DNA of 12,917 nt from positions 1-12,917 of the forward strand of contig DYJV01000064.1 in the NCBI GenBank assembly GCA_020722945.1, given 5' to 3'. Every line of letters begins with the position of its first letter. Position 1 is the first letter of the stretch. The translations under genes and the position numbers were made by a program. The stretch comes from Candidatus Methylomirabilis sp. (lineage in GTDB: Bacteria; DYJV01). Positions 203 to 5,159 of the stretch are shown here, piece after piece. The notes under the pieces were generated by a model. The model did no database searches. It was not told the origin of the DNA and saw nothing but the letters and a program-made list of their open reading frames with translations.

Positions 203-571
203 ATGAAAAATTTTTTAAAAAGAAAATTTAAAATCCAAAGAGTGTTACCCTTGATAATCTTTTCTATCTTTATCTATTCAGGATTACTTTTCTCTGATTG
301 TCCTGATTGGGTGGACTGCTGCACCAAACCAAATATGGACTATGTTGGCTCATTTCAAACTCCAACTTGTTTTAATTTTTGGAACCAAGAGTGTAAACCT
401 GCGTATTGTAAAGATAAGAAGCATGATCATCAGGAGCAGTGTAAATGGGATAGAGAGTGCAAAAAGAGATTTCCTGAAAAGTGTAAAAATGGTTGTTCCG
501 CAAATTTCCCCACATTTAATTTAGATAAAAAGGATTGTGCTGATGGATGGACACCTTGTGGAGATGATTAG
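203..571 (+). CDS. Small exported cysteine-rich protein (12 Cys), function unknown
   Basis: I do not recognise this 122-residue protein. The N-terminus is basic (KRKFK) and is followed by a hydrophobic stretch at about residues 14-30, which reads as a Sec signal peptide or an N-terminal anchor. There is no proper lipobox: the first cysteine is preceded by FSD. All 12 cysteines (33, 39, 40, 56, 64, 69, 80, 86, 94, 98, 112, 119) lie after this segment, with spacings x5, 0, x15, x7, x4, x10, x5, x7, x3, x13, x6. The even number and extracytoplasmic location fit disulfide bonds; metal binding is possible. There is no CxxCH heme site. The middle part is rich in Lys, His and Asp. The gene ends 18 bp before the regulator gene, so the two are probably co-transcribed. 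The strong ribosome binding site argues that it is real. Confidence 0.75.
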   Translation: MKNFLKRKFKIQRVLPLIIFSIFIYSGLLFSDCPDWVDCCTKPNMDYVGSFQTPTCFNFWNQECKPAYCKDKKHDHQEQCKWDRECKKRFPEKCKNGCSANFPTFNLDKKDCADGWTPCGDD

Positions 572-2058: not shown

Positions 2059-3822
2059 ATGCTCAATACTGATTTAATTAAAAATATTCACAATAAAATA
2101 GATTATGCTTTTCAGCCGATAATTACACCTTCAGGTAATACAATTGCATTTGAAGCACTTATCAGAAATACTGATAAAATTGGTTTTGAAACTATTCAAA
2201 GTTTTTTTAACTTTCTTTTTGAATCGAAACTCCTTTTTCAAGCAGAAATTATCTTAAGGAAAAAAGTTATAAAAAAATTTTCAGAGATACCTTTCTCTAA
2301 AGATGTAAAACTTTTTTATAACCACGATCCCCGTATTATTGAAATGCCTGATTATGAATTTGGGATAACAAATACTCTCCTTGATCAATTTAAAGTTGAT
2401 AGTAAGAGTTTCTGTCTTGAAGCAAGTGAGCTCTACTCATACAATTTTTCAGATTTTAATCTCAAAACATATCACCGTGCAAAAAAGGGTGGGTTTAATT
2501 TTGCACTTGATGATTTTGGTGTCGCATTTTCCAATTTTCAGATGCTATACTACATAGAACCAGATTTTATCAAGATAGACCGCTTTTTTGTTGATGGGGT
2601 GAGCAGCGACAATAAAAAGAGATTTTTCTGCCAAAAAATTGTTGAGATAGGGCATACCATAGGTTCACTTATCATTGGAGAGGGAGTCGAAGCTATCAAA
2701 GATTACTACACATTAAAGGCAATAGGTGTAGATGCCTTTCAAGGTTATCTTGTTGCCAAACCTACAACGGATAGAGAATTATTAAGAAAGTCTTATGAAA
2801 ATATAAAGGAACTTTTTGAAGTTGATAAAAGGGGTGGAAATGACGATTCTGAACTTTTAAAATCTGAAATCGAGTTTATAGAACCTGTAAAGAGTAGTGA
2901 TGAGATCAAAATAGTTTTTGAAAGATTGAAAAACCTTAAAAATGCTGATTATCTTCCTGTTGTTGATAATACAGGTTTTCCTGTGGGAGTGATACGTGAG
3001 AAGGACCTAAGGAATTACATCTATTCCCCCTTCGGCAAAGATATTCTTGTAAACAGATCTCTTAATCACAGAATACTTGATTTTACCAAACGTATAGGGG
3101 TGTGTGATATAAAGGATAGTGTTGATAAAGTATTGAATATTTACACACATTTCCTTGATAGTGAGGGGATAATTGTAAAGAGAGAAAATAAATATATTGG
3201 GATTATAAGTGCTAAATCTATTGTCAAATTAGTCAACGAAAAAAATGTTATGGAAGCAAGCAACCTTAATCCACTCACTAAATTGCCGGGTAATATGGCA
3301 ATTGCAGAGAAAATTTGTAAAGCGATGGAGGATAATGGGGCATCTTTTCACTACATAATATATTACGACTTTAACAACTTCAAACCTTTTAATGATAAAT
3401 TTGGGTTTAGGGTTGGTGATAGGGCGATACTTGGTTTTACTGATATGCTCAGAAAAGATAAAACATTTGAGAAATTTATTGGGCATATTGGGGGTGATGA
3501 TTTTGTAGAGATAATAAATATCGAAACTTCAAAATATAATTTAAATTCTATTTTAGATTATATAAAAATCATTTTTGAGAAATTTGAGGATTTTATTTAT
3601 AGCTTTTACTCTGAATCAGAGAGGGAGAGTGGATTTTACTCATCAAAGGATAGATATGGAGAGTATAAGAATTTTAATCTCCTTGATGTCAGTGCTGCTA
3701 TAGTAGAGATATCAAATAAAGCACACATATACAATGAGATAGAGTTTTCTAATATAATTGCAAATGTAAAAAAGAATGCAAAAAAATCGAGTAATAAATA
3801 CTCTATTGTTACACTTTATTAA
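2059..3822 (+). CDS. EAL-CBS-GGDEF cyclic di-GMP signalling protein
   Basis: The 587-residue protein has three parts and no visible membrane segment. The EAL phosphodiesterase domain (about 15-240) keeps the expected catalytic set: E32 of EAL, N88, E121/E124 (LEASE), D151-D152 (DDFG), K172 (KID), E208/E211 (GEGVE) and Q228 (QGYL). It should therefore be able to hydrolyse c-di-GMP. A CBS pair (about 272-395) is likely to bind an adenine nucleotide or SAM-like ligand. The C-terminal GGDEF-type domain (about 400-587) starts with NPLTKLPGN, but its signature is GGDDF (478-482) and I see no RxxD inhibitory site ahead of it. It may be a regulatory GTP-binding domain rather than a cyclase. The ATG at 2059 is preceded only by a weak TAGGAA at 2041-2046. 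The gene has its own spacer upstream and a terminator downstream, so it appears to be monocistronic. Confidence 0.9.
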   Translation: MLNTDLIKNIHNKIDYAFQPIITPSGNTIAFEALIRNTDKIGFETIQSFFNFLFESKLLFQAEIILRKKVIKKFSEIPFSKDVKLFYNHDPRIIEMPDYEFGITNTLLDQFKVDSKSFCLEASELYSYNFSDFNLKTYHRAKKGGFNFALDDFGVAFSNFQMLYYIEPDFIKIDRFFVDGVSSDNKKRFFCQKIVEIGHTIGSLIIGEGVEAIKDYYTLKAIGVDAFQGYLVAKPTTDRELLRKSYENIKELFEVDKRGGNDDSELLKSEIEFIEPVKSSDEIKIVFERLKNLKNADYLPVVDNTGFPVGVIREKDLRNYIYSPFGKDILVNRSLNHRILDFTKRIGVCDIKDSVDKVLNIYTHFLDSEGIIVKRENKYIGIISAKSIVKLVNEKNVMEASNLNPLTKLPGNMAIAEKICKAMEDNGASFHYIIYYDFNNFKPFNDKFGFRVGDRAILGFTDMLRKDKTFEKFIGHIGGDDFVEIINIETSKYNLNSILDYIKIIFEKFEDFIYSFYSESERESGFYSSKDRYGEYKNFNLLDVSAAIVEISNKAHIYNEIEFSNIIANVKKNAKKSSNKYSIVTLY

Positions 3823-3970: not shown

Positions 3971-4003
3971 TTGATTGACGAACAGAGTTATTTATATTAA
4001 TAA
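3971..4003 (+). promoter_or_regulatory. Candidate promoter of the six-gene vitamin operon
   Basis: TTGACG (3975-3980) lies 17 bp before TAATAA (3998-4003). The overlapping pair TTGATT (3971-3976) and TATATT (3993-3998), with a 16-bp spacer, is an alternative. Either would start transcription within a few bases of the ATG at 4011, where no Shine-Dalgarno sequence is present, so the mRNA may be leaderless or nearly so. It is the only region between the terminator at 3869 and the coupled genes downstream. Confidence 0.35.
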
Positions 4004-4010
4004 ATTTTAT

Positions 4011-5159
4011 ATGGAACAACAGACATTTTTTGCACCAGCCAAAAGATTATCAAAGAGCGAAATAGCTCAATCTGTCGAGAGACTTTTACAAAACTCTAAT
4101 TTTAAAATAATTGACTTTATCCCATACAATGTTCTTCTACTGAATAATTGTAGGCAGATAATCTATTGTAACAAATTTTTTCTTGAAACATTCAAAATAG
4201 ATGACCCAAATACAATTTATGGGTTAAGACCGGGTGAGCTACTCAACTGTATCAATTCTTCTATTACCTCAGGTGGCTGCGGAACATCAGAGTTTTGCAA
4301 GGAGTGTAAAGCAGTCAATACTATCCTTTCTGCATTAGATGGCAACCCTGCCTCTTCAGAGTGTCATATATTCCTCAAAAATTACACAGAGATCTTTCTT
4401 CAAGTCCATGGAGAGCCTTTCTTTGCAGATGCTGAGGAGTTTGTATTTTTTACTTTTGAAGATATCACCGAAAAAAAGATGAAAGATATAATATACAAAA
4501 GTTTCTTTGTCAGCCTCAAAAATAATATTTCAGAGATCAAGATGGCATCACAGATAATTGATGCGTCCAATCAGAAGCTATTTATAAACAGTATTTCAAA
4601 AAATGCTGATGAGATATTGGACCAGATTAATATTGAAAATTTTATATTTGATGCCTACAACAACAGAATAACTATTACACCTTCTGTTATCAATTTTTAT
4701 GATATTGTTAACGAAATTTTAGAAAATTACAGCAACTATGAGTTTTCTACCGATAATTCAAATACAAAAGTAGATATATCATCTATTGGCAGAGATATTA
4801 ATTTTATTTCAGATTATAGACTACTTTATATCCTTCTCAAAAATATACTGGTTCTATTTAATTACCTCTCCCAGAGGAGAGATTCTCATTTAAAGTTTAA
4901 TGCAAGAGTAGATGGGGAAACTCTTTTTATAATTTTCCAAAGTGATGATATTATTATCTCTGATAATATCAAGAAGCAGTTCTTCCGAAAATATTTCTCT
5001 GAGGTGATTGATACAAAATATCTCTATATATACACAATCAGGTTAATAATCCAAAAATATCTTAAAGGTATTATCGAAATCAGTTCAAAAGATTCTGAAG
5101 GGTCTACTTTTATAATCCATTTACCTTATAGGATAGAGGAAGGGATAAATGAAAGTTAA
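4011..5159 (+). CDS. Cys-rich PAS protein with degenerate histidine-kinase module (probable pseudokinase)
   Basis: The 382-residue protein looks soluble. A PAS domain (about 25-155) contains C80, C90, C96 and C99 in a pattern LNC-x9-C-G-x4-FC-x2-C, as in a family of PAS kinases with GGCG and FCxxC motifs. This cluster could bind a metal or Fe-S group. A kinase-like region follows (about 158-375). Where relatives have an H-box of the type FFHDxLN, this protein reads FFVSLKNN (165-172), so the phospho-accepting His is missing. The N-box keeps LLKN (275-278), but the Glu expected nearby is not seen. The glycine-rich ATP lid, KGxGRGLG in relatives, is replaced by IDTKYLYI (333-340). The end, GSTFIIHLPYR, is still kinase-like. 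I infer a sensor or scaffold without kinase activity. An in-frame TTG at 3975 would add 12 residues but has no ribosome binding site. The last 11 bp overlap rlpA. Confidence 0.75.
   Translation: MEQQTFFAPAKRLSKSEIAQSVERLLQNSNFKIIDFIPYNVLLLNNCRQIIYCNKFFLETFKIDDPNTIYGLRPGELLNCINSSITSGGCGTSEFCKECKAVNTILSALDGNPASSECHIFLKNYTEIFLQVHGEPFFADAEEFVFFTFEDITEKKMKDIIYKSFFVSLKNNISEIKMASQIIDASNQKLFINSISKNADEILDQINIENFIFDAYNNRITITPSVINFYDIVNEILENYSNYEFSTDNSNTKVDISSIGRDINFISDYRLLYILLKNILVLFNYLSQRRDSHLKFNARVDGETLFIIFQSDDIIISDNIKKQFFRKYFSEVIDTKYLYIYTIRLIIQKYLKGIIEISSKDSEGSTFIIHLPYRIEEGINES
5135..5144 (+). promoter_or_regulatory. Ribosome binding site of rlpA
   Basis: AGAGGAAGGG lies four bases before the ATG at 5149, inside the end of the upstream coding region. 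It supports the overlapping start, which begins directly with a lipoprotein signal peptide. Confidence 0.6.

What the first reader, a model, noticed from the sequence alone, without database searches (positions are those of the whole stretch)
4011..5159. PAS protein with four-cysteine cluster and a kinase module that has lost its catalytic motifs
The PAS domain keeps C80, C90, C96 and C99 in a C-x9-C-x5-C-x2-C arrangement. In the kinase-like part the H-box reads FFVSLKNN instead of the FFHDxLN type, and the KGxGRGLG-type ATP lid is IDTKYLYI. The fold seems kept (GSTFIIHLPYR end) while catalysis is lost. A redox- or metal-sensing pseudokinase heading an operon for B12, biotin, transport and cell-wall genes would be an unusual regulator. 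The Cys retained alongside a lost kinase suggests that sensing is the selected function.
Basis: partly seen in the sequence, partly recalled or inferred. Interest (0 to 1): 0.62.

Follow-up and report, generated by a model that had tools for sequence, protein, structure and literature searches.

The report
Cysteine-cluster PAS sensor with dead kinase
This gene encodes a member of a widespread, little-studied bacterial sensor-kinase family that has kept its cysteine-rich sensing domain intact while losing every catalytic part of the kinase, so it most likely signals by binding a partner protein rather than by phosphorylation.

Summary
It belongs to a family of soluble PAS-histidine kinases found in more than ten phyla. 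Of 142 members examined, 129 have an intact His, N-box Asn and Gly-rich lid. The window protein has lost all three (H167V, N282L, GxG to YLY), and so has its only relative in the other sequenced genome of the phylum. Apart from a few fragments and kinase-less proteins, no other member shows this. The PAS domain is ordinary for the family (mean identity 0.37; median 0.44). The DHp and CA parts are the most diverged of all (0.18 and 0.22, against 0.40 and 0.44). The frame is intact in two distant lineages, and the model keeps a full PAS-DHp-CA fold (pLDDT 89, Z 19-20 to HK853 and DivL). The best reading is a non-catalytic sensor working by protein-protein contact, as DivL does. The operon-regulator part is not supported: in the sister genome rlpA-cobT is conserved without this gene, which stands alone elsewhere. 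The cofactor (Fe-S, metal or disulfide) is not shown.

The parts
4011..5159 (+). Whole gene: 382-aa soluble PAS-DHp-CA protein with a non-catalytic kinase module (P0001). The ATG at 4011 is preferred over the in-frame TTG at 3975 because it precedes the family's N-terminal T-x-FAPA-x-R motif by a few residues, as in L002.
4023..4046 (+). N-terminal family motif TFFAPAKR (residues 5-12); T5, A8 and R12 are conserved in 86-97% of the family
4098..4475 (+). PAS domain (residues 30-155)
   Evidence: Pfam PAS_8 E=3e-4, just under the cut-off; model pLDDT mostly above 90
4248..4307 (+). Four-cysteine loop CINSSITSGGCGTSEFCKEC: C80, C90, C96, C99
   Evidence: Cys in all 87 other members of the first alignment; the same spacing is seen in nearly all members
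4362..4364 (+). C118, a fifth conserved cysteine in the strand after the loop (EC motif)
   Evidence: 95% in the family, kept here and in L002
4476..4655 (+). DHp helical hairpin (residues 156-215)
   Evidence: two long helices H153-181 and H185-216 in the model
4503..4526 (+). Degenerate H-box FFVSLKNN (residues 165-172); the phosphoacceptor His is V167 and the following Asp is S168
   Evidence: His 99% and Asp 98% in the family
4656..5138 (+). CA (HATPase-like) domain (residues 216-376)
   Evidence: Pfam HATPase_c 14.7 bits, below the 26.4 cut-off; full CA fold in the model
4842..4871 (+). Degenerate N-box NILVLFNYLS (residues 278-287); the catalytic Asn is L282, and the family Lys and Glu are also lost
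4998..5036 (+). Degenerate F/G2 box and ATP lid SEVIDTKYLYIYT (residues 330-342) in place of STKGxGRGLGTYS

Best explanation
The protein is a non-catalytic offshoot of a widespread family of soluble, mostly orphan PAS-histidine kinases with a Cys4(+1) PAS domain. The PAS cysteines probably carry a redox-active cofactor (an Fe-S cluster or a bound metal) or a redox-sensitive thiol set; this is inferred from strict conservation. A change there should alter the dimeric DHp/CA scaffold, which can no longer bind ATP productively, autophosphorylate or act as phosphodonor (inferred with high confidence from the shown loss of His, N-box Asn and lid). The output is therefore most likely a protein-protein contact: binding a response regulator, or forming a mixed dimer with one of the genome's active kinases, so that redox or metal state gates someone else's phosphorylation, as in DivL-type pseudokinases. 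Shown: the motif losses, Cys conservation, occurrence in both genomes of the phylum, and an open frame. Predicted: the fold. Inferred: cofactor, partner and output.
For: All catalytic motifs are lost while the Cys motif is 100% and C118 95% conserved. PAS identity to the rest of the family is ordinary (0.372; median 0.436, sd 0.033); DHp (0.178 vs 0.398) and CA (0.219 vs 0.440) are the lowest of all members, followed by L002. The other genome of the phylum carries the same combination. There are no stops in the kinase part in two lineages only about 20% identical there; under neutral drift at 0.3 substitutions per site, 0.15% of simulated copies stay open, and L002's kinase part keeps strong codon-position bias. 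The fold is predicted at pLDDT 88.9 and matches HK853 (Z 19.7) and the pseudokinase DivL (Z 19.3). The genome's other kinases mostly keep H-boxes, so this is not an assembly-wide error, and about 30 HATPase and 38 receiver domains offer partners. DivL is a precedent for signalling without kinase activity (PMC4211667).
Against: No partner is identified and no gene neighbourhood is conserved. The kinase part is so diverged (GC at codon position 1 is 0.31, against 0.38-0.49 in the other genes measured) that weak constraint or ongoing decay is possible. The AlphaFold model leans on the alignment of active relatives. Shared derived residues between the two pseudokinases in the kinase part only modestly exceed chance (18 vs 10.2 expected).
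Confidence: 0.55

Rival explanations
1. The kinase module is simply decaying: the gene is a relic in which only the PAS domain (or nothing) still works, and the open frame persists by chance or because the fold is needed for solubility or dimerisation.
For: The kinase part is the most diverged of all members, has low GC at codon position 1, and scores below Pfam's HATPase cut-off.
Against: Both genomes of the phylum keep a full-length frame although they are only about 20% identical there; simulation makes this unlikely under neutrality. L002 keeps strong codon periodicity in its kinase part. Structural residues such as Y341, L351, G353, G364 and F367 are kept in both.
Confidence: 0.2
2. The cysteines form a structural zinc or disulfide site of the PAS fold, and the protein is a constitutive scaffold or inhibitor, not a redox or metal sensor.
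For: Invariant cysteines are also typical of structural zinc sites (general knowledge); nothing here distinguishes zinc from Fe-S. A PAS domain that binds zinc is known in WalK (PMC6624279), though there the zinc is regulatory.
Against: Many of the named relatives come from lineages rich in anaerobes (titles), and a fifth conserved Cys, C118, is more than a tetrahedral site needs. Both points are weak.
Confidence: 0.18
3. A redox regulator that heads and controls the downstream rlpA-cobT-dctM-bioB-bioF-cbiD-cbiET genes.
For: It lies directly upstream on the same strand and overlaps rlpA by 11 bases.
Against: In the sister genome rlpA-cobT are adjacent without it and it stands alone elsewhere. 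No DNA-binding domain is found, and promoter-like matches are near chance level. The family has no conserved neighbours.
Confidence: 0.05
4. A sequencing, assembly or mis-binning artefact.
For: The genome is a draft (184 contigs, 5.8% estimated contamination).
Against: The frame is open with no stops, the same losses occur in a second genome, and the contig shares rlpA-cobT order with that genome.
Confidence: 0.02

Closest known systems
Uncharacterised PAS-Cys4 / FFHD(V/I)LN histidine kinases (the family found here; e.g. Ornatilinea apprima L006, Desulfobotulus alkaliphilus L015, Mariniphaga L040 and L052)
   Same: Length, FAPAER N-terminus, PAS with C-x9-C-x5-C-x2-C and a fifth Cys, DHp and CA in the same order
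   Different: They keep the His, N-box Asn and STKGxGRGLGTYS lid; the window protein has lost all three. No paper text contained any of six typical motif strings of this family.
DivL of Caulobacter (pseudo-histidine kinase)
   Same: PAS domains plus a kinase-fold DHp/CA without a phosphoacceptor His; fold match Z 19.3, rmsd 4.0 over 214 residues; works without kinase activity (PMC4211667)
   Different: DivL has Tyr at the His position and keeps the N, G1, F and G2 boxes, with weak ATP binding; here N-box and lid are gone too. Whether DivL has the Cys4 loop was not tested.
ChrS pseudokinase variant of Corynebacterium glutamicum (PMC9491836)
   Same: A kinase that lost its CA function but still promotes signalling through the paralogous active kinase
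   Different: A laboratory-evolved frameshift in a heme sensor, not a natural lineage-wide form.
NreB-type [4Fe-4S] PAS oxygen sensors
   Same: Four cysteines in a cytoplasmic PAS domain of a histidine kinase (NreB details recalled, not tested)
   Different: Different Cys spacing and domain layout as far as recalled; no spectroscopic evidence here.
WalK of Staphylococcus aureus (zinc in a cytoplasmic PAS)
   Same: A metal in the PAS domain controls a kinase module (PMC6624279)

Membership tests
PAS-Cys4 FFHD histidine-kinase family (defined here) | C-x9-C-x5-C-x2-C loop in the PAS domain | tested here: met
PAS-Cys4 FFHD histidine-kinase family (defined here) | Full-length homology, including the N-terminal FAPAER motif and the PAS-DHp-CA order | tested here: met
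   E down to 7e-60 over residues 5-376
PAS-Cys4 FFHD histidine-kinase family (defined here) | Catalytic motifs FFHD, KNALE and STKGxGRGLGTYS | tested here: not met
   V167, L282, Y337/Y339; so it is a homologue, not a functional kinase member
Catalytically active histidine kinase | Phosphoacceptor His in the DHp domain | tested here: not met
Catalytically active histidine kinase | ATP-binding N, G1, F and G2 boxes | tested here: not met
   HATPase_c below cut-off
Pseudo-histidine kinase (DivL-like in mode, not in descent) | Kinase fold kept without a phosphoacceptor | tested here: met
   model and fold match; prediction only
Pseudo-histidine kinase (DivL-like in mode, not in descent) | Binds a response regulator or partner kinase | not testable with these tools
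   no interaction data; no response regulator gene in the window next to it
Fe-S PAS sensors (NreB-like in mode) | Fe-S cluster bound by PAS cysteines | not testable with these tools
   needs purified protein; cysteines conserved only

The most novel reading that the evidence does not exclude
A lineage-wide, phosphorylation-free redox sensor: an Fe-S or metal PAS domain that drives a fully dead kinase scaffold as an allosteric partner of other two-component proteins, within a large, uncharacterised family of Cys4-PAS kinases.
Probability: 0.3. Interest if true: 0.62.

Novelty: new variant of a known kind. Interest (0 to 1): 0.48.

Why it matters
It points to a broad sensor-kinase family, from Chloroflexota, Bacteroidota and Desulfovibrio to a Lokiarchaeota bin, whose invariant cysteine loop did not show up in the papers searched. 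It also gives a natural experiment in which sensing is kept and catalysis lost. The known pseudo-histidine kinase DivL keeps the ATP-site motifs; this one has lost both phosphoacceptor and ATP site, which makes the question of what a kinase fold does without chemistry directly testable.

Tried and rejected
A single-protein scan of genome contigs found no relatives; an alignment was needed. Looking for a conserved neighbourhood gave none: no neighbour cluster in more than 4 loci, and receiver-type genes within about 4 kb in only 6 loci by a crude motif scan. Asking whether window and L002 share one loss: the full-length tree joins them (SH-aLRT 86) but both are long branches; a PAS-only tree leaves them apart without real support, and holding them together is not rejected and scores slightly better (p-AU 0.577); so undecided. 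Sequencing error was rejected (second genome, intact frame). Own-genome paralogues: none. A literature search for the family by motif strings found nothing.

Full report
What is there. The frame at 4011-5159 on the + strand encodes 382 aa. The family's N-terminal motif T-x-FAPAER starts four residues after the ATG at 4011, so that start is preferred over the in-frame TTG at 3975. No transmembrane segment is apparent in the sequence. Pfam sees a PAS domain (E 3e-4) and only a weak HATPase_c (14.7 bits, cut-off 26.4).

Family. A profile of four relatives found 299 related stretches in the species-level genome collection; the best 80 come from many phyla, including Chloroflexota, Thermodesulfobacteriota, Bacteroidota, Planctomycetota, Lentisphaerota, Bacillota, Omnitrophota, Elusimicrobiota, Armatimonadota and one Lokiarchaeota bin. 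Most are about 380-450 aa with the same layout: FAPAER, a PAS domain with C-x9-C-x5-C-x2-C, an H-box FFHD(V/I)LN, an N-box KNALE and a lid STKGxGRGLGTYS. No paper in the library contains any of six typical motif strings of the family. Pfam, scanned on 65 members, recognises only generic PAS and HATPase domains.

What is lost and what is kept. In the first alignment, 87 other members set the standard. The four cysteines are Cys in 100% of them and C118 in 95%; the window protein and L002 keep all five. The window protein has lost H167 (V; 99% His), D168, E162, R274, K281, A285, E287, N312, R327, T331, K332, G333, R336, G337 and G339. The column called 'N284 kept' is an artefact: MAFFT placed a 2-residue gap inside the N-box helix. 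The helix has the same length in the models of the window protein (269-286) and of an active relative (267-284), so the register is ungapped and the catalytic Asn is L282; the larger alignment agrees. L002 has I, A and E/I at the H, N and lid-Gly positions.

How unusual it is. In 142 members (first set plus surveys of relatives and of two further phyla) 129 have His, Asn and both lid Gly. Full-length loss of all three occurs only in the window protein and L002. The other cases counted as lacking all three are fragments or proteins without a kinase part (L129, L131, L132, L172). His-only losses with an intact ATP site occur in L004 (Asp), L152/L153 (Asn, one genus) and L164 (Ser). One paralogue, L176, shows the opposite: kinase intact, C90 changed to Tyr. 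Caveat: members added from the surveys were required to match a Cys pattern, so Cys conservation counts mainly in the first set; and that first set was itself found with patterns taken from the region around the cysteines, so members that lost them would be under-sampled.

Where the divergence lies. Mean identity to the rest of the family is ordinary for the window's PAS domain (0.372; median 0.436, sd 0.033) and its Cys loop (0.544 vs 0.572), but the lowest of all members for DHp (0.178 vs 0.398), CA (0.219 vs 0.440) and N-box-to-lid (0.215 vs 0.563); L002 is second lowest in each of these three. Between the two, PAS identity is 38% and kinase-part identity 17-20%.

Function or decay. Both genomes known in this phylum carry the gene once with an open frame. 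In a neutral simulation of the window's kinase part the chance of no stop is 0.077 at 0.1 and 0.0015 at 0.3 substitutions per site, far less divergence than has accumulated. L002's kinase part keeps strong codon-position bias (GC 0.344, 0.222, 0.113); the window's is weaker (0.313, 0.233, 0.291), which hints at looser constraint. Residues shared by both but not the family consensus exceed chance modestly in the kinase part (18 vs 10.2 expected, P 0.011) and clearly in the PAS domain (11 vs 3.4, P 0.0008). Whether the loss was one event is undecided.

Structure. With the family alignment AlphaFold gives mean pLDDT 88.9 and pTM 0.83, with a complete PAS, a DHp hairpin and a CA domain. Solved structures matched best are HK853 (Z 19.7, rmsd 3.4 over 219 residues) and the pseudokinase DivL (Z 19.3, 4.0 over 214). 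The alignment is dominated by active relatives, so the model shows compatibility with the fold, not proof.

Surroundings. Downstream genes are rlpA (overlapping by 11 bases), cobT, dctM, bioB, bioF, cbiD and a cbiE-cbiT fusion; upstream are an EAL-CBS-GGDEF protein and a sigma-54 activator. In the sister genome rlpA-cobT follow an integrase/recombinase-like gene (XerC-like by eye) without the pseudokinase, while the pseudokinase stands alone between genes on the opposite strand. The operon-regulator idea therefore has no comparative support. The active family members are mostly orphans too: receiver-like genes lie within about 4 kb in only 6 loci by a crude scan.

Mechanism. Shown: no phosphoacceptor, no ATP-site motifs, invariant cysteines, maintained frame. 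Predicted: kinase fold and dimerisation hairpin. Inferred: the cysteines carry a redox-active cofactor or metal, or form a redox switch, and the scaffold acts by contact with a response regulator or another kinase. DivL sets the precedent (no kinase activity needed, TNP-ATP bound weakly at 57 uM; PMC4211667), as does the ChrS pseudokinase, which raised signalling through the paralogous kinase HrrS (PMC9491836). Metal in a cytoplasmic PAS controlling a kinase is known for WalK (PMC6624279). The genome has about 30 HATPase and 38 receiver domains as possible partners, and most of its kinases keep H-boxes.

Verdict. A real, well-defined pseudo-histidine kinase of a widespread Cys4-PAS kinase family for which no description was found; a new variant of a known kind. 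Cofactor, partner and output remain to be found.

Noticed in passing
window 203-571 (+): A 122-aa secreted-looking, cysteine-rich protein with no Pfam or NCBIfam match.
   Followed up: no
window 2059-3822 (+): EAL-CBS-GGDEF protein whose GGDEF motif reads IGGDDF, just upstream of the pseudokinase.
   Followed up: no
L131 (204-aa ORF on the - strand, from 1462 of the reverse complement): The same Cys4-PAS domain followed not by a kinase but by a short Cys-rich C-terminus (LIPICAKCKKVR...HGLCPDC): the sensor used with another output.
   Followed up: no
L164 (806-aa ORF from 91, + strand): Family member with a long N-terminal part rich in HD motifs (HD-domain-like by eye) fused to Cys4-PAS and kinase, with Ser at the His position and an intact lid.
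   Followed up: partly
L152 and L153: Two relatives in one genus with Asn in place of the phosphoacceptor His but a kept ATP lid: independent His-only losses.
   Followed up: partly
L176 (421-aa ORF on the - strand): Paralogue with intact kinase motifs but C90 replaced by Tyr, the mirror image of the window protein.
   Followed up: no
L139 5373-7125: The rlpA-cobT gene pair (cell wall lytic protein and B12 phosphoribosyltransferase) is conserved between the two genomes of this phylum.
   Followed up: partly
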